NCBI RefSeq assembly: GCF_000720455.1
Contig: NZ_JOAK01000008.1
Coordinates: 1-64,000, forward strand
DNA from: Streptomyces virginiae
Lineage (GTDB): Bacteria; Actinomycetota; Actinomycetes; Streptomycetales; Streptomycetaceae
Length of the DNA stretch: 64,000 nt
Reading direction: 5' to 3'
In this document: piece after piece, positions 1 through 24,667 of the stretch
How positions within the stretch are numbered: the stretch's first letter is position 1
Layout: every line of letters begins with the position of its first letter
The notes under the pieces: generated by a model
Seen by the model: only the letters and a program-made list of their open reading frames with translations
Databases searched by the model: none
What the model was told of the DNA's origin: nothing
Made by a program: the position numbers and the translations under genes

Positions 1-3000
1 GCAGACCTCGTCGAGGGTCCGGGCGTAGACGGGGTGGGTCTCGTACAGCTCACGGCCCATGCCGGGCCGCTGACTGCCCTGCCCCGTGAACAGGAAGGCG
101 GTCTTGCCGCCGCGCTGTCCCGCCGGCGGTCCCGCGATGACGTCGGCGGACTCCTCCCCGGAGGCCAGCGCGGCGAGCGCCCGCAGCCGGCCCTCACCGT
201 CGTCCGCGACGACGGCCGCGCAGTGGGCGAGGAGCGCCGGTGCGCCGGCCAGTGACCGGCCGATGTCCGCCGGTGCGATCCGCGACGGCGCAGTTCCGGC
301 CGGCTCCGACTGCGCCGTGCGCTCGGAGACGAAGGCCAGCAGCCGGTCCGCCTGGGCCCGCAGGGCCGACTCCGTGTGACCCGACAGCAGCCAGGGCGCC
401 ATCGGCACCACCTCGGGGGCCGGGGCGGCGGGCTCCGGCTCGGTGGCGGGGGCCTGTTCGAGGACGACGTGGGCGTTGGTACCGCTGATGCCGAAGGAGG
501 ACACACCCGCCCGGCGCGGCCGGCCGGTCTCGGGCCACGGGGTCGTCTCCGTGAGGAGGGACACCGCCCCCCTGCTCCAGTCCACGTGCGAGGTCGGCCG
601 GTCGACGTGGAGGGTTTGCGGGAGGATGCCGTGGCGCATGGCCATGACCATTTTGATGACGCCGCCGACGCCTGCGGCGGCTTGGGAGTGGCCGATGTTG
701 GACTTGAGGGAGCCCAGCAGCAACGGTCGGTCGGTGTCGCGGTCTTGGCCGTAGGTGGCGAGGATGGCCTGGGCTTCGATGGGGTCGCCGAGGGTGGTGC
801 CGGTGCCGTGGGCTTCGACGGCGTCGACGTCGGTGGTGGTGAGGCCGGAGGCGGCGAGGGCTTCGCGGATGACGCGTTCCTGGGAGGGTCCGTTGGGGGC
901 GGTGAGGCCGTTGCTGGCGCCGTCCTGGTTGACGGCCGACCCGCGGATCGGCCAGGTGCAGGGCGACGAGGGAGGAGGAACAGGCCGTGTCGACGGTGAT
1001 GGCCGGACCCTGGAGGCCCAGCGCGTACGAGACCCGGCCGGACGCCACGCTGAGCGTGTTGCCGGTCGTACGGTAGGCCTCCACGGCCTCCGGAGCGTTG
1101 CGCAGGTGGGAGGCGTACTCGCTGTACATCGCACCGCTGAAGACACCGGTCCGGGTGCCGCGCAGGGTGGCGGGCGCGATGCCCGCGCTCTCCACCGCCT
1201 CCCAGCTGGTCTCCAGCAGCAGGCGCTGCTGAGGGTCCATCGCGGCGGCCTCGCGCGGGCTGATCCCGAAGAACTCGGCGTCGAACCGGTCCGCGTCGTG
1301 GAGGAAACCGCCGTTGCGGGCGTACGAATGCCCCGCGCGGTCGGGGTCCCCGTCGAAGAGCCGGTCCAGGGACCAGCCGCGGTTCGTGGGGAAGGGGCCG
1401 ATGGCGTCGGTGCCGTCGGCGACGAGCCGCCACAGGTCCTCGGGTGAGCGGGTGTCGCCCGGGTAGCGGCAGGCCATGCCGACGATGGCCAGCTCGCCCG
1501 CCAGGAACTCGGCCAGCGCCGTGGGGGTGGGGTGGTCGAAGACGGCGGTCGCCGGCAGCGTGATCCCCGTGACCGCGACGACCCGGCGCCGCAGCTCCAG
1601 CCCGGTCAGCGAGTCCATGCCGAGGGTCTTGAACGCCGTGTCCTCGTCGACGGATTCCGGGCCCGCGAGGCCGAGCACCGCGGCGACCGTGGTCCGCACG
1701 AGCTCGCCGACGGTACGCAGCCGGTCGGCGGCCGGGAGCGCGGCGGTGCGCTCGGCCCAGGAGCCACCGCCGGCACCGGAAGAGCCCGCGGCCGCGGCGG
1801 CGCGGCGGCGCGGGGCGCGGACCAGGGTGCGCAGCAGGGCCGGCGCCGACCGGTCGGGGGAGCGCAGGGTCGGCAGGTCCAGGTCGGCCGCGGCGAGCAG
1901 CGGCTCCGGCGAGGTGAGGGCCGCGTCGAAGATCTCCATGCCGCGCTCGGCGGAGATCGGCAGCACGCCCTTGCGGGCCCACCGCTTGACGTCCAGCTCG
2001 CTCAGCCCGCTGGTCATGGCACTGGCCGTGTCCCAGAGCCCCCACGCCACGCTCGTGGCGGCCAGTCCATGGTGGTGGCGGTGGTGGGCGAGGGCGTCGA
2101 GGTAGGTGTTGGCGGCGGCGTAGTTGGCCTGGCCGGGGTTGCCAATGAGGCCGGCGATGGAGGAGAAGAGGACGAAGTGGGTGAGGGGGAGGTGGGAAGT
2201 CAGCCGGTGGAGGTTCCAGGCGGCGTCGGCCTTGGGGCGGAGGACCTGGGTGACGTGCTGGGGGGTGAGGTTGTCGAGGGTGGCGTCGTCGAGGGCGCCG
2301 GCCGCGTGGACGACGGCGGTGAGGGGGTGCCGGGCGGGCACGGCGTCGAGGAGGTTCTGCAGGGACTGGCGGACGGCGGTGTCGCAGGCGGTGACGGTGA
2401 CGTGGGCGCCGGCCGCCGTGAGTTCGTCGGCGAGTTCCCGGGCCCCGGGGGCGTCGGGTCCGCTGCGGCTGGTCAGGAGCAGGTGTCGGACGCCGTGGCG
2501 GGTGACGAGGTGGCGGAGGCGTGGGGTGTGGAGCCGGCCGTCGCGGAGGCTGTACTGGGTGTCGGGGTGGGTGGCCGCGGTGTGGGCCGCGGCGGCCAGC
2601 TGCCCGGTGTCGGCGGCGTCGATGTCGAGGTGGGTGAGCCGGCCGGGGTATTCGTTCTGCGCGGTGCGGACGAGGCCGGTCAGGGCCGCGGCGGGCAGGT
2701 CGCGGATGTCCTGGTTGGTGCTGATGGCCGTGGCACGGCGGGTGAGCAGGACGATGCGGGTGGAGTCGAGAGCGGTGTCGGTGAGGAGTTCCCGGAGGGT
2801 GGCGAGGGTGTTCTGAACCGCCTCGTGCACGTCCGCGTACTCGTCCGACAGGGCTATGAAGGAAGGCAGTTGGGCGCCGTCGCCGAGAGCCGTCCGTAGT
2901 TCCGCCACGTCGGCGTACGTGTCGCCCGAGACGGCCGGGGCCAGCCCGTGCGGGTCGGATCCGAGCACGGCCCACAGCCCCGCAGCGGTCTGCGCACCGC

Positions 3001-6000
3001 CCGGGGCTTCCGCGTCCGCCTGCGGCGCGGGCTGCCACACCAGCCGGTGCAGCCCGGAGGGCCGCCCCGCGCTCCGCGCGGCACGCAGGTCACCGGCCGG
3101 ACGCAGCGTGATGGAGTCGACCGTGACGACGGGCCGGCCCTCGGGGTCGGTCGCCGTCAGCGAGGCCGTGTTGGCGTCGACCGGGACCACGTGCACGCGC
3201 AGCGCGGTCGCGCCCGAGGCGTGCAGGGTGACCCCGCTGAAGGAGAACGGGATGGTCAGCTCGGTGCCGTCACCGAGCAGCATCGCGTGCAGGGCAGCGT
3301 CGAGGAGCGCCGGGTGGATCGCGAAGGCCGAGGCGTCGGCGTGCTGTTCCGGTGTGAGGGAGACCTCCGCGAACCGCTCCCCGACCGCCGCCCCCGACGC
3401 CGGCGAGGCCCCCGCCCCCGACGAGGTCCCCGGCCCCGACAGCCAGGCCCGGCCCAGGCCCTGGAAGACCGGCCCGTACTCGTAACCGCGGTCGGCGAGC
3501 CGGTCGTAGACGTCGTCGAGCGGGACCGGCCGCGCGCCCTGCGGCGGCCAGGCCGGCGCGGCGGCGGGGACCGGGTGCTCGCCGGTGGCCAGTACGCCCG
3601 AGGCGTGCCGGGTCCATTCCGCGTCGGCCGCGCCCTCGGGGCGGGAGTGGACGGTGACGGACCGGGTGCCCGACTCCTCGGCCGGGCCGAGCGCGACCTG
3701 GAGGTGGACGCCGCCCTCCTCCGGGACGATCAGCGGCGCCTCCAGGACCAGCTCGCGGAGCCGGTCGTAGCCGAAGCGGTCACCCGCCGAGACCGCCATG
3801 TCGACGAGGGCGGTGCCGGGCAGCAGGACCGTGCCGACCACCGCGTGGTCCACGACCCACGGGTGCGTACGGCGGGAGACGCGGCCCGTGAACAGGACTC
3901 CCTCGCGGTCGGCGAGGCTGGTCACCGCGCCCAGCAGCGGGTGCTCCGCCGGGGTGAGGCCCAGGCCGGCCGGGTCCTCCGCCGTGACCGGGGTGTCGAG
4001 CCAGAACCGGGTCCGCTGGAAGGCGTACGTCGGGAGCTGGACGCGCCGGGCGCCCGTACCGGCGAACACGGCGGACCAGTCGACGCCGATGCCGTGGCAG
4101 TGGGCCTCGCCCAGTGCGAGCAGCAGCCGCCCGGCCTCGTCCTCGTCGCGGCGCAGGGTGCCCAGGGCGGTGCCCCGCACGCCCGCCTCGTCGAGAGCGG
4201 CCTGCACCCCGATGGTGAGCACCGGGTGCGGGCTGACCTCGATGAAAGTATGGTGCCCGGCGGCGAGGAGCTCCCCGACCGCCTGCTCGAACTGCACGGT
4301 CTCGCGCAGGTTCCGGTACCAGTACCCGGCGCCCATCACGCGCGCGTCCGGGAGCAGCGCCCCGGTCAGCGACGAGTACACCGGGACGTCGCCCGGTCCC
4401 GCCTCGATCCCGTCGAGGACCCGGGCCAGCTCGTCTTCGAGTGCTTCCACGTGGGCCGAGTGGGAGGCGTAGTCCACGTCGACGAGACGGGCCCTCGCCC
4501 CCTCCTCCTTGACCTGGGCGAGGAGCGCGCGCAAGGCCTCCGGATCGCCGGAGACCACGGTCTGGGCGGGGCCGTTGACCGCGGCGACGGAGATCCTGCC
4601 CTGCCAGGCGCCGATGCGCTCGCGCACCCACGTGGCCGGCCGGGCCACGGACATCATGCCGCCCCGGCCCGACAGCACGGTCAGCGCGCGGCTGCGCAGC
4701 GCCACGACCCGGGCGGCGTCCTCGACGCTCAGCACGCCGGCCACGCAGGCCGCCGCGATCTCGCCCTGCGAGTGGCCGATCACGGCGGCCGGTTCGACGC
4801 CCAGCGAGCGCCACACCGCGGCCAGGGACACCATCACCGACCACAGGACGGGCTGCACGACGTCGACGCGCTCGAAGCCCGGAGCCCCCTGCGCGCCCCG
4901 GACCACGTCCAGGAGCGACCAGTCCACGTGCGGCTCCAGGGCCGCGGCGCACTCGGCCATCCGGCCGGCGAACACGGGGGAGGACTCCAGCAGGCCGGCC
5001 GCCATGCCCACCCACTGCGCGCCCTGGCCGGGGAAGACGAACACGGGGCGGGCGGCGGGCCGGCTCTGCCCGGTGACGACGCCGCGGGCGGTGGCCCCGT
5101 CCACCAGGGCCAGCAGGCCCTGCTCCAGCTCCGCACGGTCGGCGGCGACGACAGCGGCACGCCGGTCGAAGTGGGCGCGGCCGACGGCGAGGGAGCGGCC
5201 GATGTCCGTGAGCCGGACGCCGGGGTGGTCGCGCAGGTGGTCCAGGAGCCGGCCGGCCTGCGCGCGCAGCGCCCGGTCGCTCTTCGCGGACACGAGGAAG
5301 GGGACGGGTCCGGTTTCGGCGGGCGCGGGCGCGGGCGCCTCGGCGGCGACCGGCTCCGCCGCCTGCTCCAGTACGAGGTGGGCGTTGGTGCCGCTGACGC
5401 CGAAGGAGGAGACCCCGGCCCGGCGCGGCCGCCCGGCCTCCGGCCACGGCGTGGCCTCGGTCAGCAGCGAGACCGCGCCGCTCGACCAGTCCACGTGCGA
5501 GGTCGGGGTGTCCACGTGCAGGGTGCGCGGCAGCAGGCCGTTGCGGATCGCCATGACCATCTTGATGACGCCGCCCGCGCCGGCGGCGGCCTGCGTGTGC
5601 CCGATGTTCGACTTCAGCGAGCCCAGGAACAGCGGCCGGCCGGCGTCGCGGTCCCGGCCGTACGTCGCCAGGATCGCCTGGGCCTCGATGGGGTCGCCGA
5701 GCCGGGTGCCCGTACCGTGCGCCTCGACGGCGTCGACGTCCGCGGCCGACAGGCCGGAGGCGGCGAGGGCCTCCAGGATGACGCGCTCCTGGGAGGGGCC
5801 GCTGGGGGCGCTCAGCCCGTTGCTGGCGCCGTCCTGGTTGACGGCCGACCCACGGATGACCGCGAGGACCTCGTGGCCGTTGCGCCGTGCGTCGGAGAGC
5901 CGCTCCAGGAGCAGCATGCCGACGCCCTCGCCCCAGCCCGTGCCGTCCGCCGCCTCCGCGAACGACTTGCAGCGGCCGTCCACCGACAGACCGCGCTGAC

Positions 6001-9000
6001 GGCTGAACTCCACGAACATGCCGGGGCTCGCCATCACCGTCACGCCGCCGGCCAGGGCCAGTTCGCACTCCCCGGCCCGCAGCGCCTGCGCCGCCGTGTG
6101 CAGCGCCACCAGCGACGCCGAGCACGCCGTGTCGACGGTGACGGCCGGACCCTCCAGACCGAGGGTGTAGGAGGCGCGGCCGGAGACCACGCTCGTGTAC
6201 GTGCCGGTCAGCAGGTAGCCGCCGACGCCCTCGCCCGCCTCGTGCAGGCGCGGCCCGTAGTCCTGGGCCATCGCGCCGACGTACACCCCGGTCCCGCTGC
6301 CGCGCAGCGAGGCCGGATCGATCCCGGCGCGCTCCACCGCCTCCCACACGGTTTCGAGGACCACGCGCTGCTGCGGGTCCATGGCGGCGGCCTCGCGCGG
6401 GCTGATCCCGAAGAACTCGGCGTCGAACCGGTCGACGTCGTGCAGGAACCCGCCCTGGCGGGTGTACGAGGTGCCCGCACGGTCGGGGTCCCCGTCGAAG
6501 AGGGTCTCCAGCGCCCAGCCGCGGTTGCCGGGGAATTCGGAGACGGCGTCGCGCTCCTCCACGAGCAGCCGCCAGAGGTCCTCCGGGGACTCCACCCCGC
6601 CGGGGAAGCGGCACGCCATGGACACGATCGCGATCGGCTCGTCGGAGCCGTGGTCCCGGCGCGCGGCGGCCCGGGAGACCGGCCGGTGCGCGGGCACCGC
6701 CCCGGAGAGCTCGGCGAGCCGCGCGACCAGCTTCTCGGGGGTGGGCCGGTCGAACAGGAGGGTGGTGGGCAGTTTCAGTCCGGTGGCGGCGACGAGCCGG
6801 TTGCGCAGTTCCACCGCGGTCGCGGAGTCGAAGCCGAGTTCCTGGAAGGTGCGGGCCGGGTCGACGTCCGCGCCGTTGCCGCGGCCGAGGACCAGGGCCA
6901 CCTCGTTGCGCACCAGGTCCGTCAGGAACCGGGCCGTGCGCTCCGGGTCCCCGCCGCTCCGGAAGGGGGCGCGGGCATCGGGAGCGCGGAGGCCGAAGGG
7001 GTACGTGGGCAGGTCGACGACCGTGGCGTCCGCGGGGAAGGCGGGGCTCCAGTCCACGGGGGCGCCGTGCGCGTACGCCTCGGCCACGGAGGACAGGAAG
7101 CGGTGCGGTCCGTCCGCCCCGCGCCGCAGCGAACCGACCGCGACGGCGGTGGAGCCGGTGTCCTCCAGGGTCTGTTCGAGGGGCAGGGTCAGCACCGGGT
7201 GGGGGCTGATCTCGACGAAGAGGTCGTGGTCGGCGACGCACCGGACCGAGCTCTCGAACAGCACGGGCTCGCGCAGGCTGCGGAACCAGTACGAGGCGTC
7301 CAGCGAGCGGGTGTCCAGCAGTGCGCCCGTCAGGGCCGAGTGGAAGGGGACGGTGCCCTTGCGCGGCCGGATGGGCGCCAGCACGGTGAGCAGCTCTTCG
7401 TGGATCTCGTCGATGTGCGCGGAGTGCGCCGCGTAGTCGATGGCGACCCGTCTGACCCGTACGCCGTCGGCGGTGAGCTCCTCCTGGAGCCGCTCGACGG
7501 CGTCCAGGTCACCGGCGACCGCGATCGACCGCGGACCGTTGACGCCCGCGACGGACAGCCGCTCGCCGTACGGGGCGGTGCGCGAGCGCACCTCGTCGAG
7601 GGGCAGCAGGATCGAGAGCATGGAGCCCCTGCCCGCGAGCCGGGCCTGGGCCCTGCCGCAGAGCGCGCTGACCCGGGCACCGTCCTCCAGGCTCAGACCG
7701 CCCGCGACGACGGCGGCGGCCATCTCGCCGATGCTGTGGCCGACGACCGCGGCCGGCTCGACGCCGAAGGAGCGCCACAGGGCTGCGAGGCCGAGGGAGG
7801 TCGCGAAGAGTGCGGGCTGGACGACGTCGACGCGGTCCAGAGCGGGCGCGCCCGGCGCCCCGCGCAGCACGTCCTCCAGGGACCAGTCGACGTACGGGGC
7901 GAGCGCCTCGGCGGTGGCCCGGACACTGGCGAGGAAGACGTCGGAGCCGTCGAGCAGGTCGGCGGCCATGCCGGGCCACTGCGCGCCGTGGCCCGGGAAG
8001 ACGAAGACGGTCCGGTCGCGCGGCGCGGCCGTGGCACTGACGCGTCCGGGGCCGCGGCGGCCCTCGGCGAGCGCGGCCAGCTCCTCGGCGAACTCGGCCC
8101 CGGTGGCGGCCAGCAGGACCGAACGGTGCGCGAACGCGGTGCGCGAGACGGCCAGGGAGTGCCCGACATCGGCGGCGCCGGGGTGTCCGCCGGCGCCGTC
8201 GGCGAGCTGCGCGAGGAGCTGCCCCGCCCGGGCGCGTTCGGCCGCCGCGGTGTGCCCGGAGACAACCCACGGCAGCACCCCGGCCCGGAAGGCGGCGGGC
8301 CGCCCGGTGGACCGTACCTGTGCACCGTCACGGGGCGTCCCGTCGACCTCCACGCCCCACACCACCCCGTCGAAGTCGACCGCCCGCACCACGCCGGGCC
8401 GCCCGGCCGCGGCGGAGCGCACCGCCCCGGCCAGCCGAACCCCGGCTCCGGCCCCGGCTTCGGACGCGGGCCGGGCCGCGTCCGGTTCGGGGGCCGGGCC
8501 CGTGGCTCCGAGCACGGCGAGGATCCTGTCGCCGTCCGCCTCGGCCCGGGCCAGGGGCTTGAGGACGACGACGGCCCCGTCCGTGGCGCCGGCGAGGGCG
8601 ATCAGGCTCTCCCCGGCGCGCAGGCTCTCCGCCGCGAGGTGCACCGCCGCCAGGGCGGACGCCGCGTCCGCGCGTACGGTCCGGTGCGCACCGGTCAGGC
8701 CGAACACGGCCGCGACCTCCCCGGTGACGCCCTCGGCGTCCGCCCCGAGGAAGAGCCCCGTACCGGCGGAGCCGCGCAGCGAGGCCGGCAGGGTACCGGC
8801 CTGCTCCAGGGCCTCCCAGCACAGTTCCAGCAGGAGCCGCTGCCGCTCGTCCACCGACGCGGCCGCCTCCGGCCCGATGCCGAAGAACGCCGGGTCGAAG
8901 CCCTCGGCTCCGTCCCCTCCCGGGACGCGGCAGGACAGCCCGATGACGGCGACGGGCTCCCCGGCGGTCCCGGCGAACTCGGCATCGCGGCGGGTGGTCT

Positions 9001-9010
9001 CGACAGACAT
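1..9010 (-). CDS. Modular type I polyketide synthase, partial at the left edge, reading frame broken near 950
   Basis: Start is taken at the ATG at 9010, with GAGG 6 nt upstream; a GTG at 9022 is possible. Domain order: shortened KS-like region (residues about 20-300), AT (GHSIGE near 430, YAAH near 530), ACP (GFDSA near 730), full KS (DTACSAS near 966), AT (GHSQGE near 1419, YASH near 1517, methylmalonyl type), DH ([11 protein letters not shown] and [10 protein letters not shown] both present), KR, ACP (GMDSL near 2469), a second full KS, and the first residues of an AT at the window edge. The reading suggests a loading module, one extension module with DH and KR, and the start of another. 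Three things are odd. The first KS has Ala where Cys is expected. The KR lacks its TGGTGxLG loop. The last KS loses about 78 codons and shifts frame near 950; HGTGT and KSNIGH continue in another frame. It is the last gene in view of an aminotransferase-P450-PKS operon. Confidence 0.9.
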
Positions 9011-9034
9011 GCGGATCCTCACTCCAAGTCCAAA

Positions 9035-10354: not shown

Positions 10355-11518
10355 TCAGGTGTTCAAGAGGCGGCGCTCGGCCTCGCGCAGGACCGAGACC
10401 TGCCGGTTGAACGCGATGCGCACGTAGCTCTCCCCGTCGGCCGGGTCGGCGAAGAAGGGCGTTCCGGGGACGACCAGCACCCCGGTCCGGTCCAGGAGTT
10501 CGCGGACGAAGCCGAGGCTGTCCGGCCGGCCGCCGGTGAGCGGGCCGATGTCGGCGAAGAGGAAGCAACCGCCCTCCGCCGGGGTGAACTTCATGCCCAT
10601 GCGCGAGAAGACGTCCTGGGCGAGGTCGCGCCGCTGCGCCATCTGGGCCGCCGCGACGGTCGGGTCGACGCCGTGGGCGGTCCGTCCGGCGGCCACCTGG
10701 AGCGGGACAGCGGCGCCCAGCGTGGTGAGTTCGTGCACCTGGCGCAGCGCGCCCGTGCGCACCGGGTCGGACCGCAGGAAGCCCAGCCGCCATCCGCTGA
10801 CGGCGTGGCTCTTGGACAGGGACCCGACGACGATGCTGCGCTCGGCCAGCCCGGGCACGTCGGCCACGGAGACGTGGGGACGGCCGTCGAAGGTGAAGGC
10901 GCGGTAGACCTCGTCGGAGATCACGGTGACGTCCCGGCGCTCGCACAACTCGGCGATCTCGCCCAGCTCCTGGCGGGTGAGGACGCGTCCGGTCGGGTTG
11001 CCGGGGGTGTTCAGGACGACGGCCCGGGTGCGGGGGGAGAAGGCGGCGGCCAGCTCGGCGGGGTCGAAGCGCCACTCCGGCGCGTGCAGCCGTACGTACC
11101 GGGGTACGGCCCCGGTCAGTTCGACGGCGGCGGTGAAGTGGTCGAAGCCGGGGTCGAAGAGGATGACCTCGTCGCCGGGATCGACGGTCGCCAGCAGCGC
11201 GACGAAGAGGGCCTCCGTCGCGCCCGCGGTGACGGTGACCTCGGTGTCCGGGTCGGTGGGGGTGCCGAGGGACTCCGCGATCCGCTGCCGCAGGGTCGCG
11301 TCCCCGTTGGGGTGCTCGTACTGGTTGTGGCCGGCCCGCACGGCACGGGCCGCCTCCTCGATCATGTCGGCGGAGGTCTCGGGGTGGCCGGGGGTGCCGA
11401 CCGCCAGATCGACGGCGTCACGGGTCCGCGCCAGCATGAACACCTCGGTCAGGCCGCTGCCCTTGAGCCGGGCCGCACGCGACGAGACGGGCGACCTGTG
11501 GGCCCGGGAGTGCGTCAT
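10355..11518 (-). CDS. PLP-dependent aminotransferase, class I/II
   Basis: 387 residues. Fold-type I features are visible: GATEAL near residue 100, NTPGNPTG, ISDEVY, and the PLP lysine in VGSLSKSHAVSGWRLGF. The ATG at 11518 is preceded by AGGAGG at a good distance, so the in-frame upstream extension to 11902 is not used. It is the first gene of the minus-strand operon aminotransferase-P450-PKS. Members of this family act on aspartate, alanine or aromatic amino acids. Its role is presumably to make or modify a precursor for the cluster, but its specificity is unknown. The promoter would lie in the 417-bp region shared with the LmbU-type gene. Confidence 0.92.
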   Translation of the reverse strand: MTHSRAHRSPVSSRAARLKGSGLTEVFMLARTRDAVDLAVGTPGHPETSADMIEEAARAVRAGHNQYEHPNGDATLRQRIAESLGTPTDPDTEVTVTAGATEALFVALLATVDPGDEVILFDPGFDHFTAAVELTGAVPRYVRLHAPEWRFDPAELAAAFSPRTRAVVLNTPGNPTGRVLTRQELGEIAELCERRDVTVISDEVYRAFTFDGRPHVSVADVPGLAERSIVVGSLSKSHAVSGWRLGFLRSDPVRTGALRQVHELTTLGAAVPLQVAAGRTAHGVDPTVAAAQMAQRRDLAQDVFSRMGMKFTPAEGGCFLFADIGPLTGGRPDSLGFVRELLDRTGVLVVPGTPFFADPADGESYVRIAFNRQVSVLREAERRLLNT

Positions 11519-11790
11519 TTCCGATCCTCCTGCTCCTGCTGAATCGACTGAATTAGCTGAATAGGGAGGCGCAGTGCGGGCGCGGGAAAACGGCCATAGC
11601 CGTTCCGCTTTACCTCTGGTGCCTCGTGAAGAAAGCCGAGCCGGCGGCGATGTGAATTCTGCTGAGCCGCTGCGGAGAAACTCTGGCCGAGAATGAACAT
11701 ACCTCTCGCCCGGGAGGCGGAGAACAGAACGGCGACGACAGAGGGCGACGGCGTACGACGGCCGTTCGGTTGTTCGACGAGCCGGCCGGC

Positions 11791-11810
11791 CCGTCCCGTC
11801 GACGGGACGG
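11791..11810. promoter_or_regulatory. Palindromic operator, copy A
   Basis: CCGTCCCGTCGACGGGACGG is a perfect 20-bp palindrome in the divergent region between the aminotransferase and lmbU-type genes, 125 bp upstream of the latter. The 16-bp core recurs at 13522-13537 and 15597-15612, each time between two divergently transcribed genes of the cluster. This suggests a dimeric pathway-specific regulator. Which protein binds is not shown. Confidence 0.7.
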
Positions 11811-11814
11811 CGCC

Positions 11815-11847
11815 GCCCCGAAGACGCCCCGAAGACGCCCCGAAGGC
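11815..11847 (+). repeat. Three 11-bp direct repeats upstream of lmbU-type gene
   Basis: Three head-to-tail copies of GCCCCGAAGAC (third copy GCCCCGAAGGC) start 4 bp after palindrome A. Direct repeats at 11-bp spacing are the usual layout of SARP binding sites, though the heptamer here is not a named consensus. About 30 bp downstream, AGCACGTGCT (11879-11888) is another perfect palindrome close to the gene start. Confidence 0.55.
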
Positions 11848-11935
11848 GCGTGCGCCCGGGCGACTTTGGCACGCCTTTAGCACGTGCTGCGAGCCTCCAC
11901 ACCTGTTCTGGGGGACCCCTTCACATGGAGGCACG

Positions 11936-12727
11936 ATGGCGATTCAGGCCGGCGACATCGACGGATCGAGAACGGGGCAGATCCGTCCGGCCCCCGAGCC
12001 GGCGCCGAGGGCGCGCAGGGGCATGGGCGAGGACCCGCGGCGCGGCCAGGTGCTGACCACGAAGGTGGGCCTGCAGATGCCGGCCGGGATGTCCTTCGAC
12101 GACTGGGAGAAGGCCGGGCGCCAGCTGTCCGGAATCGTGGATTCCTCATCCTGGTGGCTCGGCGACTGGCTCGTGTACGGCAAGGACCACTACACCGACC
12201 GCTACCAGCGCGGGATCCGGGCCGCGGGGCTCCAGTACCAGACCCTGCGCAACTACGCCTGGGTCTCCCGCCGCTTCGACTTCAGCCGGCGGCGGGGCTC
12301 CCTGAGCTTCCAGCACCACGCCGAGCTGGCGTCCCTGCCGCACGACGAGCAGGAGACCTGGCTCGACCGCGCCGAGCAGCGCAGATGGACCACCAAGCAG
12401 CTGCGCGGCGCCATCCGCGCCGCACGCGAGAGCCAGGACCGGGTCCGGGTCCCCGCGGAACCGACGCGGAGGCTCGAAGTGCCGGGCAGCCGTCTGCAGT
12501 GGTGGCACCGGGCGGCCGAGCAGGCGGGCGTGGACTTCGAGCGCTGGGTGCTCGTCACCTTGGACAGCGCGGCCAAGCAGGCCCTGGCCGAACTCGGCAG
12601 GCTGGACGCCGCGGACGGGCCGGCGGAGCTCACGGCGCCGACCGCACCCGGTGGGCCGCTGGAGATCGAGGGGCCGAAGCCGCCCGCGGAGCGGGGTGGG
12701 TCCGAAGGGCCGGCCTCCGGTGCCTGA
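11936..12727 (+). CDS. LmbU-family transcriptional regulator
   Basis: 263 residues. The central part carries the signature of the LmbU/NovE/HmtD group: SFDDWEKAGRQL, SSSWWLGDWLVYG, YQTLRNYAWVSRRF and LSFQHHAELASL. LmbU of the lincomycin cluster is a dimeric DNA-binding activator of its own cluster. The C-terminal 40 residues are Pro/Gly-rich and probably flexible. The ATG at 11936 follows GGAGG by 4 nt; an ATG at 11925 is too close to any ribosome binding site. It is divergent from the aminotransferase operon and convergent with the piperazate synthase gene. It is the only obvious regulator inside the cluster, so it is the first candidate for binding palindromes A-C. That link is inference. 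Confidence 0.9.
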   Translation: MAIQAGDIDGSRTGQIRPAPEPAPRARRGMGEDPRRGQVLTTKVGLQMPAGMSFDDWEKAGRQLSGIVDSSSWWLGDWLVYGKDHYTDRYQRGIRAAGLQYQTLRNYAWVSRRFDFSRRRGSLSFQHHAELASLPHDEQETWLDRAEQRRWTTKQLRGAIRAARESQDRVRVPAEPTRRLEVPGSRLQWWHRAAEQAGVDFERWVLVTLDSAAKQALAELGRLDAADGPAELTAPTAPGGPLEIEGPKPPAERGGSEGPASGA

Positions 12728-12754
12728 CGCACCGCGCGGCCGCCCGCGGCGCAC

Positions 12755-12785
12755 GGGCCCGCACTCCGCGGGGGAGTGCGGGCCC
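12755..12785. terminator. Bidirectional terminator
   Basis: 13-bp perfect stem (GGGCCCGCACTCC and its complement) with a 5-nt loop, between the converging lmbU-type and piperazate-synthase genes. There is no T-run, as is common in Streptomyces. Confidence 0.7.
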
Positions 12786-12804
12786 CGCGGGGGTGTCCGC
12801 CGGA

Positions 12805-13455
12805 TCAGGGCAGCTGCCGCATGAGGTCGGCCGTGTCGCGCTGCCGCGGGCACCCGCTGTGGGTGAAGGACTCCAGCACCCGTCCGCGCACCTCGGCGGG
12901 CTGTTCCTGGCTGAGCTTGAACATGCCCTCGGCGCCGGTCACGGTGATCCGGAAGGCGCCCACGCCCGGCAGGAGCTGGTGGAAGTAGCCGACCGAGTCG
13001 GTCATGTCCCAGCCCGTCCCGAACTTCGCCTCCTCGAAGGCGCGCACGGTGGACCGCACCACCTCCATCGTCTCCTCGCTCGATTCGATCTTCTCCACGA
13101 CGCCGCGTACGTGCACCGAGGTGAAATCCCATGTCGGGGCCGCCGGTGATTTCTCGTACACCGTCGGGGAGACATAGGAATGCGGGCCGGTGAAGGTCAG
13201 CAGGACGACGCCGCCCGTCTTCATTGCCGCCCAGTGCGGATTCGCCTTGTTCATGTGGCCGAGGAGCCTGGCCCCTGAAAGGTCCGGGGCCCATGCGTCC
13301 AAATTCTCCTGCGGATCGGCGATGACCGGCAGATGCGTGGCGAACGGGCCGTCCTCGACGGTCCCGTTGGTCACCGCCAGGGCCAATGGATTCTCGCGCA
13401 TCAGATCGGTCATCCATGAACTGTCGGGTTCACGGTAGTTACTGGGGACGAACAT
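12805..13455 (-). CDS. Piperazate synthase, PaiB-like (KtzT/PipS type)
   Basis: 216 residues of the PaiB 'FMN-binding negative regulator' fold: MFVPSNYREPD, ATHLPVI, GHMNKANPHW, TFTGPHSYVSP, WDFTSVHVRG, FKLSQEQP. In actinobacterial clusters, members of this family next to an ornithine N-hydroxylase are heme-dependent enzymes. They close N5-hydroxyornithine to piperazic acid by forming an N-N bond (KtzT of the kutzneride pathway). Here an ornithine hydroxylase is divergently transcribed 234 bp away and an MbtH gene lies beyond it, which makes that reading much more likely than a transcription factor. Palindrome B lies 65 bp upstream of the start. The alternative is a true PaiB-type regulator. 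Family assignment is firm; the enzymatic role is inferred from context. Confidence 0.85.
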   Translation of the reverse strand: MFVPSNYREPDSSWMTDLMRENPLALAVTNGTVEDGPFATHLPVIADPQENLDAWAPDLSGARLLGHMNKANPHWAAMKTGGVVLLTFTGPHSYVSPTVYEKSPAAPTWDFTSVHVRGVVEKIESSEETMEVVRSTVRAFEEAKFGTGWDMTDSVGYFHQLLPGVGAFRITVTGAEGMFKLSQEQPAEVRGRVLESFTHSGCPRQRDTADLMRQLP

Positions 13456-13519
13456 CCTGAATTCACCCTTTCGGTCGGCGCGGTGCGTGAATACATGAAA
13501 ATCCGGACCGACCGTACCG

Positions 13520-13539
13520 CTGTCCCGTCACCGGGACAC
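13520..13539. promoter_or_regulatory. Palindromic operator, copy B
   Basis: CTGTCCCGTCACCGGGACAC has perfect arms TGTCCCG/CGGGACA around TCAC. It matches copy A at 15 of 20 positions. It sits between the divergent piperazate synthase and ornithine hydroxylase genes, 65 bp and 150 bp from their starts, and could serve both promoters. Confidence 0.65.
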
Positions 13540-13689
13540 CGGCCTTCGGTATTCGGATCGCGCAAAGGCCGCTCGGATTGCCTTGTTGGTGCCTTCAGGT
13601 TGGCGCCGGGACGTTCTCCGGCGCAATACTGAAGAAAGGTCTCCCGGATCACCGGTCGAGATTCCAAGACGCTAGCGGGAGAATTGTCT

Positions 13690-15054
13690 ATGGGTACAAC
13701 GGGTACGCATAACCATGAAATTCACGACGTGGTCGGCATCGGCTTCGGCCCGTCCAACCTGTCGCTCGCAATCGCTCTGGAAGAGCACCGGGCCAACGTT
13801 CCGGACCGTCCGGTGAAGGCCGTGTTCTTCGAGCGCCAGGCGTCGTTCGGATGGCACCGCAACATGCTGCTGCCGTCGACGACCATGCAGATCTCGTTCC
13901 TGAAGGACCTGGCGACCTTCCGCAATCCGGTGTCCCGGTTCAGCTTCGTCTCGTATCTCCACGAGGCCGGGCGCCTGGTGCAGTTCGTCAACAACCAGGA
14001 TTTCTTCCCGACCCGGCAGGAATTCCACCACTACCTGGAATGGGCGGCGGCGGGCCTCGCCGACCGGGTGTCCTACGGATCAGAGGTCACCGCGATCCGG
14101 CCCGCCGGGGACGCCGGGCGCGGATCCCCCGACCACCTCGAGCTGGAGGTGCGGGGCGCCGGCGGCGACGTCCGGCTGGTCAAGACGCGCAACGTGGCCA
14201 TATCGACCGGCCTGGTGCCGCGCCTGCCGGCCGGGGTGACCGCGGACGAACGGGTCTGGCACAGCTCCCAGTTCCTGGAGAGGTTCCGCGGCCTCGACCC
14301 CAACGAGCTCAAGAGCGTGGCGGTGGTCGGCGCCGGCCAGAGCGCGGCCGAGATCACCCGGTTCCTGTACGACACGCTCCCGCACGCGCGCGTCAGCGCG
14401 GTCATCCCGTCCTACGGGTACTCCGTCGCGGACGACACGCCCTTCGCCAACCAGGTGTTCGACCCGGCCGCGGTCGACGAGTACTACTTCGGCACCGACC
14501 GGGCGCGGGAGGCCTTCTGGCGCTACCACCGCAACACGAACTACTCCGTCGTCGACGACGAGGTGATCCGCGCCCTGCACCAGCGCTCGTACGAGGAGGA
14601 GGTGCGCGGCGACAAGCGGCTGCACTTCCTCAACCTCACCCGGGTCGCCGAGGTCGGCCGGGTCGGCAACGAGACGCGGCTCACCCTCAACTCGCTGCTC
14701 GACAGCGAGCCGCAGGAGCTGGACGTCGACGCGCTCGTCTTCGCGACGGGCTACGAGGGCATGGACCCCGCCGGCCTGCTCGGCGACTTCGACCGGCACT
14801 TCCTGCGCGACGAGACGGGCCGCCACCGGGTGGAGCGCGACTACCGCCTCGTCACCGCGTCGGGCCTGTCCTGCGGGATCTACCTCCAGGGCGGCACCGA
14901 GCACACCCACGGCCTGTCGTCGTCCCTGCTGTCGAACATCGCCGTGCGCAGCGGGGAGATCGCCGACTCCATCGTCCTGCGCAGGGCCGAGCAGGAACTG
15001 GCCGGGGCGCGTGCCGTCGAGGCCGCCGGCGCGGGTGCGGCCGTCCGGGCCTGA
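13690..15054 (+). CDS. L-ornithine N5-hydroxylase (KtzI/PvdA/SidA family)
   Basis: 454 residues. Class B flavin N-hydroxylase motifs: the FAD loop GIGFGPSNLSLA near residue 20, the NADPH loop VAVVGAGQSAAE near 215, HRNTNYSVVDDEVI, and ATGYEG near 355. It hydroxylates the side-chain amine of ornithine (less likely lysine) using NADPH and O2. Together with the divergent PaiB-like gene it forms the known two-step route to piperazate. The ATG at 13690 is chosen because GGGAG lies 8 nt upstream; the TTG at 13684 is too close. A siderophore role is possible for this family alone, but no siderophore synthetase is present. Confidence 0.92.
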   Translation: MGTTGTHNHEIHDVVGIGFGPSNLSLAIALEEHRANVPDRPVKAVFFERQASFGWHRNMLLPSTTMQISFLKDLATFRNPVSRFSFVSYLHEAGRLVQFVNNQDFFPTRQEFHHYLEWAAAGLADRVSYGSEVTAIRPAGDAGRGSPDHLELEVRGAGGDVRLVKTRNVAISTGLVPRLPAGVTADERVWHSSQFLERFRGLDPNELKSVAVVGAGQSAAEITRFLYDTLPHARVSAVIPSYGYSVADDTPFANQVFDPAAVDEYYFGTDRAREAFWRYHRNTNYSVVDDEVIRALHQRSYEEEVRGDKRLHFLNLTRVAEVGRVGNETRLTLNSLLDSEPQELDVDALVFATGYEGMDPAGLLGDFDRHFLRDETGRHRVERDYRLVTASGLSCGIYLQGGTEHTHGLSSSLLSNIAVRSGEIADSIVLRRAEQELAGARAVEAAGAGAAVRA

Positions 15055-15074
15055 CCCGGGATCCCCCGCACGGC

Positions 15075-15124
15075 CGAAGGGTGGGCCCCGGTGCTGTTCG
15101 TCCAGCACCGGGGCCCACCCTTCG
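15075..15124. terminator. Bidirectional terminator
   Basis: 22-bp perfect stem with a 6-nt loop (TTCGTC), starting CGAAGGGTGGG. It lies between the convergent ornithine hydroxylase and MbtH genes. Confidence 0.85.
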
Positions 15125-15177
15125 TACGTCATCGGCCGTTCCGCGGAATGCGCGCAATACGCGGCACCCCCATCACT

Positions 15178-15414
15178 TCACGCGGCGTCGGCGGAAACCC
15201 GGTCCGCGGCCATCGCGTCGCGCAGGCTCTGCGGCCGCAGGTCGGTCCAATTCGCCTCGACGTACTCCAGGCACAGCTGGCGGCTTTCCTCACCGAAAAC
15301 GATGCGCCAGCCGGCGGGAACCTCGGCGAACGACGGCCAAAGCGAGTGCTGGTCCTCGTCGTTCACCAGTACGTAGAACCGGCCGTCAGCGTCGTCGAAC
15401 GGGTTGCTGCTCAT
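15178..15414 (-). CDS. MbtH family protein
   Basis: 78 residues starting MSSNPFDD, a normal MbtH length. The signature is intact: [14 protein letters not shown] and [11 protein letters not shown]. MbtH proteins bind and activate or solubilise NRPS adenylation domains. None is in the window, so an NRPS should lie nearby, most likely left of position 1. The ATG at 15414 follows GGAG by 8 nt; upstream in-frame codons are not MbtH-like. The gene is divergent from the acetylglutamate kinase gene, with palindrome C between them. Confidence 0.95.
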
Positions 15415-15594
15415 GAATCCACTCCAATTCAAGCCGTTCACGGTGCGCTTCCCGGACGGGAAACGGACCGTCATCCATTAAGGGGGAGGGAGTTGGCGGG
15501 ACCGCCGTGCCCGATCATGGCACCTTTCGGCCGCCCGGTGGAGCCCGGTGTGGGGACGGGGCGTCCCGCCGGCACCGTCGACGCGTTTGTCCCG

Positions 15595-15614
15595 CCGTCC
15601 TGTTGACGGGACGG
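15595..15614. promoter_or_regulatory. Palindromic operator, copy C
   Basis: CCGTCCTGTTGACGGGACGG differs from copy A at 2 of 20 positions. It lies between the divergent MbtH and acetylglutamate kinase genes. Further GTCCCG half-sites occur just to the left, near 15562 and 15588. Confidence 0.68.
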
Positions 15615-21235: not shown

Positions 21236-24200
21236 ATGGAGCCCGGCACCATCGGCATCAGGCTGGCCTCGGCGGCCGTCGGACCCCTCGTGAAGAAGCT
21301 GTTCGTCAGCGAGGGCGCCGGCGCCGGCGTCGTCGACCGGCCGATCCGCCTTTCGGGCTACGTGTCCTTCACGGGCGAGAAGCGTTCCCTCACGGAATCA
21401 GACCTGCGCACGCTGGCCGCCAAGCTGGTGAAACAGGCCCTGCGCACGGGCGAGCGCCCGATCACCGAAGACGAACAGCAGGCCGTCACCGACGCCCTCG
21501 CGCAGACCCTGCGGGGCCTCGGCGACCTGACCATGACCGACCTGGACGCCGTCCGGCTCGGTTCCGCGGCCTTCGCGCGCGAACTGCGCGCCGTGAGCGG
21601 CCACCCCGAGCGGGAGCTCACCGCCGACGCCACGCACTTCCACGAGCGCCTCGTCGACACCGCCTGCCTGCACATCCTGCAGTTCTTCACCCAGCGCTCC
21701 ACCTTCGTGGCCCACGCCATGGTGGAACAGACCCGTGGGATCGCCGAACTGACCGCCAAGGTCGACGAACTGATCCGTCGCGACCCGCTGCCCGGAGCCG
21801 AGGACGCCGCGTTCGAGCAGCTGTACCTCCCGTACGTGGAGAAGAAGCACGGCAAGCTGACCATCTACGGCATCGACCTCACCAACTCCCCGACCCGGTG
21901 GCCCCTGGACGCGGCGTACCTGAGCCTGGAGGCGGCGCCGCTCGCGCGCGCTCGGTGGACGAGGAGCGGCCACTCGGGTCCGGCCGGTGCGGAGCAGAGC
22001 GACTACGGTGCCGTCATCGACGTGATCACGCCGGCATCCGTCGCACGCCTCTCGCCGGCCCGGTCACCGGCCGAGGCGGCTCGCACGACACGGGCGGGAC
22101 TCCCGCAGCCGCCGGAGGACAGCCGGTCCGCCGAGGAGGCGGGCGCCCGGCTCGCTGCGGACCACGGACTGGACCGGCAACAGTTCGACCGGGCGTTTCG
22201 GAAGCTGTTCCAGACCCTCGTGCCGCGGCCCGCCGACCACGCCCTGGCCGACAACCCCCGGGTACTGCTCCGCGGCGAAGCCGGGTCCGGCAAGACCACC
22301 CTCGTCCAGTGGCTGGCCGTCACCGCCGCCCGCCAGGACCTCACCCCGCAGATGGAGTACCTCGACGACCGCATCCCCTTCGTCCTGCCACTGCGCACGC
22401 TCACCCGCCACGGCGAACGGCTGCCCGCGCCACGGGACTTCCTGACCGCGGCCGGCTGTCCTCTCGGCGCCGCCCAGCCCGACGGCTGGGCCCACCGCGT
22501 CCTGCTGGCCGGCCGCGGCCTCGTCCTCGTCGACGGCATCGACGAGATCCCCGACACCGAACGCGAACGCACCCGCGGCTGGCTGCGGGACCTGATGGAC
22601 ACCTACGACGGGGACAACCGCTGGCTCGTCACCTCGCGCCCCTCCGCCGTCGGCGCGGACTGGCTCGCAGAGGAGGACTTCACCGAGCTGACCCTGTCCG
22701 CCATGGGCCGAGCGGAGGTCACCACCTTCATCAGGCGGTGGCACACCGCCGCCCGCGACGGCGGCGAAGCCGACGCGAAACTCCGGACGTACGAGACCCA
22801 GCTCCTCACCGCCGTACGGACCAAGCCCGACCTCGGACGCCTGGCCACCAACCCCCTGATGTGCGGACTGATCTGCGCCCTCCACCGCGACCGGAACGGC
22901 TACCTCCCGCACGGCCGCAAGGACCTCTACGAGGCCGCCCTGTCCATGCTGCTGAGCCGCCGCGACCGCGAACGCGACATGGCGGTCCCGGACCTGCGGG
23001 AGGAGCCACAACTCGACCTGCTGCAACGCCTCGCGTACTGGCTGATCAAGAACGGCCGCACGGAGATGGACCGTTCCCGCGCCGAGGAGATCATCGCCCG
23101 CGCACTGCCCGCGGTCCAGGAAGCGGCCGCCCTGGGTGACGCGCCCGTCGTCTTCGAGCACTTCCTCCAGCGCAGCGGGCTCCTGAGGGAACCGGGGCCC
23201 GGCACGGTGGAGTTCGTCCACCGCACCTTCCAGGACTTCCTGGGCGCGCGGGCCGCCGTCGAGGAAGGCGACTTCGGGCTCCTCACCGGCCACGCCGACG
23301 ACGACCAGTGGGAGGACGTCATCCGGATGGCGGTCGCCCTCGCCCGCCCCGCCGAACGCGTCACCATCATCCGCGACCTCCTCGCCCGTGGCGAGAACTC
23401 CTCCGACCAGCGCACCCGCGCCCGCATCTACCTGCGCGCCGCCGTCTGCCTCGAACACGCCACCACCCTCGACCCCGAAGTACGCGCGGCCGTCGAAGCA
23501 CGCACCGCCACACTCATCCCCCCGGCGAACGCGGAGGAGGCCCGCGCCCTGGCGAAGGTCGGCCCGCTGCTCCTGAGCCTGCTCCCCGGCCCGGAGAAGC
23601 TTGACGACATGGACGCGTACCACGTGGTGATCGCGGCCTCCCGGGTCGGATCGGACTCCGCCGTGTCCTACCTCGCGCAGTTCGTGGAACACCGCTGGCC
23701 ACCGGTCCGTTCCGAACTCCTGCTGGCCTGGCCGCGCTTCGACAGCGCCGAGTACGCCGACGAGGTCGTCGCACACCTGGATCCGGCGGGTCTGCAGTAC
23801 ACCGTCCGGTCCGACGACCAGCTGGACCAGCTGGAACGTCTCGCCGTCCGGCCGGAGGGCCTGATCGTCAGGGGCGGCGTGTCCTGCGGGGCCCTGGCGG
23901 GCTACCTCGGCCGGCACGGCCTCCAGGCGATCACGTTCGCGAGCGAGGCGACCCTGTCCGGTCTGGAATGCCTGCGGGGACAGTCCGCCCTGCACACCCT
24001 CGACATCGACGGCTGCCCGGACCTGACGGACCTCTCCGCGATCGGCGGCCTTCCGATCCGGCGACTGAACATCGCGACGGGCCGGCCGGACCTCGACCTG
24101 CGTGCCGTCGCCCAGCTGGGCCACCTGGAAGTCCTGACCGTCGACGGCCCCGCAGGCCTGAGCTGGTCCCCGCGGTCGCTGCCGATGAGCGCCCCCCTCC

Positions 24201-24667
24201 AGGGGCTGCTGGTACGCGGTGAGACGAGCCCCGCGCACGGACTCGACGGGCTCGGCTCGCTCCCCGCGCTCGTCCGCCTCGTGCTCAATGCCGAGTCCAG
24301 TCCGGCCTCGGCCGCCGACTGGCAGGAGATCCGGGCCCTGCCCCGCCTCGGCAGCCTCAGGGTGTCCGCCACCTCGATCGGGGCCATGCCGGCGGGCATG
24401 ACGCTCCCGGGCGTCAACAGCCTCACCCTGGACGGTACGTGCGGCGAGAGGGTACTGCGGATGGTGATCAGGCGGTTGCCGCTGGCGTTCCCCGGGCTCC
24501 GTGAGTGCCGCTTCCCGGGGAAGTTCACGCCGGAAGGCGACACCGGCATCGACATCGGGCCGCTGGGCGGACTCCCGCGCCTGCAGGAGGTCCAGATCCT
24601 GGCGAGCCGTGACCGGGTCCGCGGCGCCGAGCTGCTGCCGCCGTCGGCGAGGGTCTTCTTCGGATGA
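21236..24667 (+). CDS. NACHT-domain STAND NTPase with leucine-rich C-terminus
   Basis: 1143 residues. N-terminal helical region (about 1-200, beginning IRLASAAVGPLVKKLF), a linker, then a NACHT module with Walker A GEAGSGKTT near residue 348 and Walker B LVLVDGIDEIP near 429. SRPSAVG and a helical winged part follow, then from about 880 a run of short leucine-rich repeats (LHTLDIDGCPDLTDLSAIGG, LEVLTVDG, LVRLVLNAES). This is the architecture of bacterial NLR-like proteins; several NACHT proteins of this type protect against phage by sensing and oligomerising. There is no obvious toxic enzyme domain, so the helical N-terminus would be the effector. It appears to be a single-gene transcription unit. 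The ATG at 21236 follows a GGGGGG tract. An anti-phage role is inferred from the family. Confidence 0.85.
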   Translation: MEPGTIGIRLASAAVGPLVKKLFVSEGAGAGVVDRPIRLSGYVSFTGEKRSLTESDLRTLAAKLVKQALRTGERPITEDEQQAVTDALAQTLRGLGDLTMTDLDAVRLGSAAFARELRAVSGHPERELTADATHFHERLVDTACLHILQFFTQRSTFVAHAMVEQTRGIAELTAKVDELIRRDPLPGAEDAAFEQLYLPYVEKKHGKLTIYGIDLTNSPTRWPLDAAYLSLEAAPLARARWTRSGHSGPAGAEQSDYGAVIDVITPASVARLSPARSPAEAARTTRAGLPQPPEDSRSAEEAGARLAADHGLDRQQFDRAFRKLFQTLVPRPADHALADNPRVLLRGEAGSGKTTLVQWLAVTAARQDLTPQMEYLDDRIPFVLPLRTLTRHGERLPAPRDFLTAAGCPLGAAQPDGWAHRVLLAGRGLVLVDGIDEIPDTERERTRGWLRDLMDTYDGDNRWLVTSRPSAVGADWLAEEDFTELTLSAMGRAEVTTFIRRWHTAARDGGEADAKLRTYETQLLTAVRTKPDLGRLATNPLMCGLICALHRDRNGYLPHGRKDLYEAALSMLLSRRDRERDMAVPDLREEPQLDLLQRLAYWLIKNGRTEMDRSRAEEIIARALPAVQEAAALGDAPVVFEHFLQRSGLLREPGPGTVEFVHRTFQDFLGARAAVEEGDFGLLTGHADDDQWEDVIRMAVALARPAERVTIIRDLLARGENSSDQRTRARIYLRAAVCLEHATTLDPEVRAAVEARTATLIPPANAEEARALAKVGPLLLSLLPGPEKLDDMDAYHVVIAASRVGSDSAVSYLAQFVEHRWPPVRSELLLAWPRFDSAEYADEVVAHLDPAGLQYTVRSDDQLDQLERLAVRPEGLIVRGGVSCGALAGYLGRHGLQAITFASEATLSGLECLRGQSALHTLDIDGCPDLTDLSAIGGLPIRRLNIATGRPDLDLRAVAQLGHLEVLTVDGPAGLSWSPRSLPMSAPLQGLLVRGETSPAHGLDGLGSLPALVRLVLNAESSPASAADWQEIRALPRLGSLRVSATSIGAMPAGMTLPGVNSLTLDGTCGERVLRMVIRRLPLAFPGLRECRFPGKFTPEGDTGIDIGPLGGLPRLQEVQILASRDRVRGAELLPPSARVFFG

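What the first reader, a model, noticed from the sequence alone, without database searches (positions are those of the whole stretch)
11791..15614. One palindrome in three divergent promoters of a piperazate-type cluster
Copies of GTCCYGTYRMCGGGAC lie at 11793-11808, 13522-13537 and 15597-15612. Copy A is a perfect 20-bp palindrome and copy C differs from it at two bases. Each sits between divergently transcribed cluster genes: aminotransferase/lmbU-type, piperazate synthase/ornithine hydroxylase, and mbtH/argB. This defines a candidate cluster regulon that ties argB and mbtH to the piperazate genes. The LmbU-family protein is the first candidate binder, although the LmbU site reported for lincomycin is a different short palindrome.
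Basis: partly seen in the sequence, partly recalled or inferred. Interest (0 to 1): 0.8.

Follow-up and report, generated by a model that had tools for sequence, protein, structure and literature searches.

The report
Operator box of LmbU-family antibiotic regulators
The repeated palindrome is real and recurs beside many actinobacterial antibiotic gene clusters that carry an LmbU-family regulator; it is most likely the DNA switch that this regulator binds, of which only the middle eight bases appear to have been described.

Summary
The three copies are where stated; the exact pattern occurs at four places in the 8.3 Mb genome, three of them here.

In 64 loci with LmbU homologues, GTCCYGYYRRCRGGAC occurs 93 times in 49 loci; permuted half-sites average 0.46. 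Among 5,376 palindromes ranked without prior choice, GTCC-N8-GGAC is first in non-redundant intergenic DNA. Of 295 Streptomyces genomes, 47 of 54 with LmbU hold the box (167 sites), against 72 of 241 without (84 sites).

In more distant LmbU loci it often reads GTCCCGCCGGCGGGAC or GTCTCGCCGGCGAGAC. The published LmbU site CGCCGGCG is thus probably its core, not "a different short palindrome".

Best reading: the box is the LmbU-family operator, set between divergent operons and perhaps activating from about -70. In the aurantimycin cluster, where the LmbU-family ArtB is a genetically proven activator, strict boxes precede artA-artB, artL and artT. Two further boxes on contig C10 probably belong to the same cluster (inference).

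Not shown: binding by this LmbU; the lincomycin promoters themselves were not seen.

The parts
11791..11810 (.). box A, perfect 20-bp palindrome CCGTCCCGTCGACGGGACGG between aminotransferase and lmbU
13522..13537 (.). box B, a degenerate copy between piperazate synthase and ornithine hydroxylase genes; in orthologous loci this is the most constant site
15597..15612 (.). box C between mbtH and argB
11936..12727 (+). LmbU-family regulator, proposed binder; only copy in the genome
   Evidence: NF038070 231.5 bits, cut-off 125
12805..13455 (-). piperazate synthase (KtzT/HmtC type; name by homology and context)
   Evidence: PF04299 FMN_bind_2, E 2.1e-40
13690..15054 (+). L-ornithine N5-hydroxylase (start read from the sequence; the mechanical ORF begins at 13684)
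   Evidence: PF13434, E 3.4e-109
15178..15414 (-). MbtH-like protein
   Evidence: PF03621
15785..16789 (+). acetylglutamate kinase ArgB (ornithine supply)
   Evidence: TIGR00761, 227.2 bits, cut-off 151.3
10355..11515 (-). PLP-dependent aminotransferase, head of the leftward genes after box A
   Evidence: PF00155
9137..10327 (-). cytochrome P450
   Evidence: NCBIfam P450 models, below their cut-offs
1..9022 (-). modular polyketide synthase, cut by the contig end
   Evidence: PF00109, PF00698, KR, DH, PP-binding

Best explanation
The palindrome is the operator of the LmbU-family regulator encoded beside it. The family box is YGTCCYGYYRRCRGGACR (GTCY...RGAC in some lineages): two abutting 8-bp half-sites, proposed to be read by a dimer through a ParB/Noc-like helix-turn-helix. 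It sits between divergent operons and is proposed to activate them, often from about 70 (or 80) bp upstream of the start. In this cluster it would co-ordinate piperazate synthesis, ornithine supply (argB), mbtH, lmbU itself and the PKS/NRPS operons. Shown here: conservation, placement upstream of operons, co-occurrence with LmbU. Shown by others: LmbU binds CGCCGGCG; LmbU, ArtB, HmtD and AcnO act as activators. Inferred: direct binding by this LmbU, the activation geometry, the dimer architecture, and that C8 and C10 form one cluster.
For: 93 strict boxes in 49 of 64 LmbU loci against a mean of 0.46 for 1,679 permuted half-sites; spacing 8 gives 184 GTCC/GGAC pairs, other spacings 26-124. 79 of 93 intergenic where 83% of the DNA is called coding, with little flank conservation beyond one more pair. 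Top of 5,376 palindromes in 34 non-redundant loci, 57 against 5.0 expected. 295 genomes: 47/54 with LmbU, 72/241 without, Fisher P 6e-15; three or more sites in 27/54 against 2/241. GTCC-N8-GGAC upstream of piperazate synthase in 22 of 28 genes from LmbU genomes, 0 of 8 from genomes without. In 34 mainly distant LmbU loci, 18 of 136 CGCCGGCG words have palindromic 4-bp flanks, all GTCC (13) or GTCT (5). Aurantimycin cluster: boxes at operon heads, ArtB knock-out lowers product to about 45%, extra copy raises it 1.9-fold (PMC5031334 passages). -10-like elements peak 49-51 bases after the box, P 0.008.
Against: No binding data for this protein. 7 of 54 LmbU genomes lack the strict box and 6 of 34 distant loci lack even the general one. 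In the distant set the strict half-site ranks only 7th among its permutations; those above it are degenerate near-variants, and two unrelated-looking palindromes outrank GTCC-N8-GGAC there. Only 6 of 63 lmbU genes have a box within 500 bp upstream, so autoregulation is not general. 79 of 695 other genes in these loci also have GTCC-N8-GGAC upstream. Site B is degenerate. The promoter-distance peak rests on 7 of 36 elements. Loci were chosen by LmbU, so that set cannot itself show association; the genome survey does.
Confidence: 0.83

Rival explanations
1. The box is bound by another regulator that travels with the same clusters (for example TetR or SARP type), or by a global factor, and LmbU acts indirectly.
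For: LmbU clusters often hold other regulators (ArtX in aurantimycin; SARP, TetR, ArsR and MarR genes in the lunaemycin table, PMC9866976 passages). Binding was not tested.
Against: Association with LmbU holds with piperazate synthase absent (20/27) and across unrelated clusters; the box centre equals the published LmbU site, with GTCY flanks. A global factor would not explain 3.09 against 0.35 sites per genome.
Confidence: 0.12
2. The palindromes are terminators or other hairpin elements rather than operators.
For: A and the two C10 copies are long perfect inverted repeats; one further genomic match, C7:25457, sits inside a much longer inverted repeat and looks like a terminator.
Against: Most sites lie upstream of genes, many between divergent genes; sequence, not only pairing, is conserved; asymmetric copies B and C break pairing.
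Confidence: 0.03
3. Chance or shared ancestry of nearly collinear clusters.
For: The three closest relatives are nearly collinear, and genomes without LmbU still hold 0.35 sites each.
Against: Flanks diverge while the box stays; the non-redundant set still ranks it first; it occurs in loci from Streptomyces, Yinghuangia, Actinacidiphila, Actinomadura, Dactylosporangium and two unnamed families' members, though not in strict form in the Nocardia, Sinosporangium, Streptacidiphilus or Mangrovihabitans loci.
Confidence: 0.02

Closest known systems
LmbU (lincomycin) and its site CGCCGGCG in the lmbA and lmbW promoters
   Same: Same protein family (NF038070); the 8-mer fits the centre YGYYRRCR, and the extended TCGCCGGCGA (PMC10763038 passages) fits the GTCT...AGAC form found in five places in distant loci
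   Different: Here the palindrome is 16-18 bp with near-invariant GTCC/GGAC ends; close relatives use GTCGAC- or GTCGGC-type centres. lmbA has T/A where this box has C/G; its outer flanks were not seen
ArtB in the aurantimycin cluster (and HmtD himastatin, AcnO actinomycin)
   Same: LmbU-family activators of peptide clusters; boxes in the art contig and in the S. himastatinicus locus L119 between piperazate synthase and argB homologues
   Different: Their binding sites are not given in the passages read; art genes and piperazate genes lie on two contigs with two LmbU genes
ParB/Spo0J/Noc and their 14-16 bp palindromes (parS, NBS; recalled)
StrR-family boxes GTCCAR-N17-YTGGAC (recalled)
   Same: GTCC/GGAC ends
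   Different: Spacing 17 and other half-sites; absent from the window

Membership tests
LmbU family of transcriptional regulators | match to NF038070 above the curated cut-off | tested here: met
   231.5 bits against 125
LmbU family of transcriptional regulators | conserved helix-turn-helix with the arginine pair (LmbU R101/R102, R101 needed for binding, PMC6510168) | tested here: met
   R112 and R113 are nearly invariant in 40 homologues; mapping to R101/R102 is by position in the helix, as the LmbU sequence was not at hand
LmbU family of transcriptional regulators | binds the palindrome in target promoters | not testable with these tools
   needs EMSA or footprint
LmbU operator CGCCGGCG | site contains CGCCGGCG | tested here: not met
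   A, B and C have CGTCGACG, CGTCACCG and TGTTGACG centres; they fit the wider YGYYRRCR form (B with one departure)
ParB/Noc proteins | ParB-type DNA-binding fold | tested here: inconclusive
ParB/Noc proteins | N-terminal ParB domain seen by Pfam | tested here: not met
   0 Pfam families at E 0.001 for the LmbU protein
StrR-type operator | TCCAA-N17-TTGGA | tested here: not met
   no match in the window
piperazate biosynthesis genes | FMN-binding-2 synthase next to an ornithine N-hydroxylase | tested here: met

The most novel reading that the evidence does not exclude
LmbU proteins are a recruited ParB/Noc-like DNA-binding fold joined to a ribbon-helix-helix-like part, and one 16-18 bp operator code, GTCYYGYYRRCRRGAC, serves much of the family across actinobacteria. 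Bidirectional class I activation from this box ties precursor supply to NRPS/PKS operons, and in this clade reaches the primary arginine operon in trans through a box before argC.
Probability: 0.3. Interest if true: 0.75.

Novelty: new variant of a known kind. Interest (0 to 1): 0.62.

Why it matters
LmbU-family genes are in 54 of 295 sampled Streptomyces genomes, and a published survey places nearly two-thirds of such genes in biosynthetic clusters (PMC7014725 passages). The site in use is an 8-mer that is common in GC-rich DNA: 306 copies in the 64 loci, 7 of them inside the box GTCCCGCCGGCGGGAC. A 16-18 bp box with about 0.35 hits per genome lacking LmbU would make regulons of this family predictable, mark operon heads in silent clusters, and give an exact sequence for binding and reporter tests.

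Tried and rejected
Trans-regulation of a second NRPS cluster on contig C10: not kept as the default, because C10 ends and C8 begins inside what looks like one acyltransferase domain in compatible orientation. No exact end overlap exists, so contiguity is inferred. Relatives of the C10 P450 lie about 10-50 kb from an LmbU gene on the same contig in G093, G139, G179 and G246.

Housekeeping argC: GTCTCGTCGACGGGAC lies 229-259 bp upstream of the query start in all four genomes with this cluster, and no GTCY-N8-RGAC in the 24 other argC loci with upstream sequence (18 genomes, 9 with LmbU and 9 without; 2 loci had no upstream sequence). In 16 further loci of close relatives (14 of them in the 295-genome set and without LmbU, 2 not tested) none is exact: the best are 1, 2, 3, 4 and 5 mismatches, the rest 6-7. 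In some relatives the place looks like the coding tail of the upstream gene, so coding constraint may explain part. Left open.

Weak NF038070 matches in other proteins were suspected to be StrR-type; the translations of the four loci fetched did not suggest it by eye and no family scan was run. TGTC-N5-GACA looked like a second motif but nearly all copies are an offset reading of the box. Upstream counts for the ornithine hydroxylase are not used: loci cut at their edge gave false distances. In six distant loci the pattern lay only inside called genes and is not counted as intergenic. Site calls depend on a simple GC-based gene caller of mine, which makes some false genes. Viral and metagenome collections were not searched.

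Full report
Observation. The three copies are exactly where stated. Copy A is the longest perfect palindrome in the window. The exact pattern occurs at four distinct places in the 8,316,910-base genome, three here and one on contig C10. With 2 mismatches there is no excess over the reversed control (89 against 100 forward), so only near-exact copies inform. A general pattern GTCYYGYNNRCRRGAC, which misses the degenerate copy B, has 8 places in the genome against 4 for its control: A, C, two on C10, one before argC on C13, one in a terminator-like repeat on C7 and two on C5, one of these inside a called gene and the other not examined.

Genes. The regulator at 11936-12727 is LmbU family (NF038070, 231.5 bits) and the only one in the genome.

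The rest of the cluster. C10 carries C10:262730, in a 28-bp perfect palindrome, and C10:266515, in a 24-bp one, upstream of a thioesterase and a long NRPS. C10 ends in the C-terminal part of an acyltransferase domain on the minus strand and C8 starts with an N-terminal part on the minus strand; I infer one cluster split by assembly. In the three nearest relatives boxes also lie on the contig that holds the relative of the C10 P450; in two of them a pair lies 3.6-3.9 kb apart, in the third the two candidate copies are on different contigs.

Footprint. 64 named loci with LmbU homologues were fetched with up to 10 kb flanks. GTCCYGYYRRCRGGAC occurs 93 times in 49 of 64; 1,679 permuted half-sites average 0.46, the highest (81 and 79) being near-variants of the same word. 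GTCC and GGAC at spacing 8 give 184 pairs in 61 loci, other spacings 26-124. 79 of 93 sites are intergenic by my gene caller, while 83% of the DNA is called coding. To remove hindsight, 256 four-base half-sites at 21 spacings were ranked in intergenic DNA of 34 loci that differ by 20% or more in LmbU: GTCC-N8-GGAC came first, 57 against 5.0, and 25 of 34 loci hold the general box. In 34 mainly distant loci the same box read one base further out (TGTC-N10-GACA) came first and GTCC-N8-GGAC fourth, behind two forms of another palindrome.

Which genes. GTCC-N8-GGAC within 500 bp upstream: piperazate synthase 40 of 46, mbtH 15 of 19, aminotransferase 4 of 6, argB 7 of 21, lmbU 6 of 63, other genes 79 of 695. 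So the piperazate and mbtH promoters are the constant targets; the lmbU and argB links of the window are lineage-limited.

Link to LmbU. Of 295 genomes in the genus, 54 have LmbU, by protein search and by family cut-off alike. The strict box is in 47 of 54 (167 sites; its reversed control has 45) and in 72 of 241 without LmbU (84 sites); Fisher P 6e-15; 27 against 2 genomes have three or more. Genomes are related, so the P value is optimistic. Of 27 LmbU genomes without a piperazate synthase match, 20 have it. Of 36 piperazate synthase genes examined (of 37 matches), 22 of 28 from LmbU genomes have GTCC-N8-GGAC upstream and 0 of 8 from genomes without LmbU; one of the 8 had only 106 bp to read, and these 8 are more diverged, so the contrast is partly confounded.

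The published site. LmbU is reported to bind CGCCGGCG in the lmbA and lmbW promoters, extended to TCGCCGGCGA from lmbA (passages of PMC6510168 and PMC10763038). In the 34 distant loci CGCCGGCG occurs 136 times; 18 have palindromic 4-bp flanks, 13 GTCC and 5 GTCT, no other. In the 64 closer loci it occurs 306 times; GTCC is again the commonest palindromic flank (7), with GCTG 2 and four singles. GTCYYGYYRRCRRGAC is intergenic in 22 of 34 distant loci, only inside called genes in 6 and absent in 6. The published core is thus most simply the middle of this box. The lincomycin promoters were not available to prove it.

A tested example. The aurantimycin cluster lies on NZ_AOPZ01000014 (PMC5031334; passages and section 5 read). 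In contig C14 of that genome, whose gene order and sizes match the art table, strict boxes are at 8310 and 8366 before artA(mbtH)-artB, 36515 before artL and 57936 before artT, and a GTCC...GAGAC variant at 11519 between artD and artE. ArtB there is the LmbU homologue. Its knock-out lowers the product to about 45% and an extra copy raises it 1.9-fold. AcnO is needed for actinomycin (PMC6521150 passages); HmtD is reported to activate himastatin genes (PMC7014725 and PMC6510168 passages).

Print. Five 16-mer forms of the box were sought as text in the held open-access papers: none found. Searches on LmbU with palindrome, binding motif, HmtD, homologues, himastatin, piperazate and aurantimycin led to papers whose passages gave only the 8-mer and its 10-base extension. 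Subscription papers and supplements were not seen; the 2018 LmbU paper is not held.

Verdict.

Noticed in passing
L165, L167, L173, L179, L184, L191, L202: A second palindrome TCCAA-N17-TTGGA, 13 intergenic copies in 7 of 98 loci, resembles the StrR-family box (recalled) and lies near LmbU genes, several with a GTCC-type LmbU box: a possible LmbU/StrR cascade like NovE/NovG.
   Followed up: partly
L239-L242, about 230-260 bp upstream of argC: GTCTCGTCGACGGGAC before the primary arginine operon in all four genomes with this cluster and not exact in the others examined.
   Followed up: partly
G024:C33, G121:C28, G141:C53, G194:C61, G199:C22, G303:C18: Extra argC copies within about 10 kb of LmbU genes, suggesting dedicated ornithine supply in such clusters.
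   Followed up: no
window 1-600: The leftmost polyketide synthase ORF (194-9022) leaves the frame that encodes the acyltransferase start at the contig edge; a frame break or an assembly error.
   Followed up: no
L119 10001-10870: The LmbU homologue (HmtD) in the held S. himastatinicus record reads in two frames, probably a sequence error.
   Followed up: no
L163 around 3458: Box match C7:25457 lies inside a much longer inverted repeat between called genes and looks like a terminator, not an operator.
   Followed up: partly
window 21236-24667: NACHT protein with an NNH1 N-terminal domain beside the cluster.
   Followed up: no
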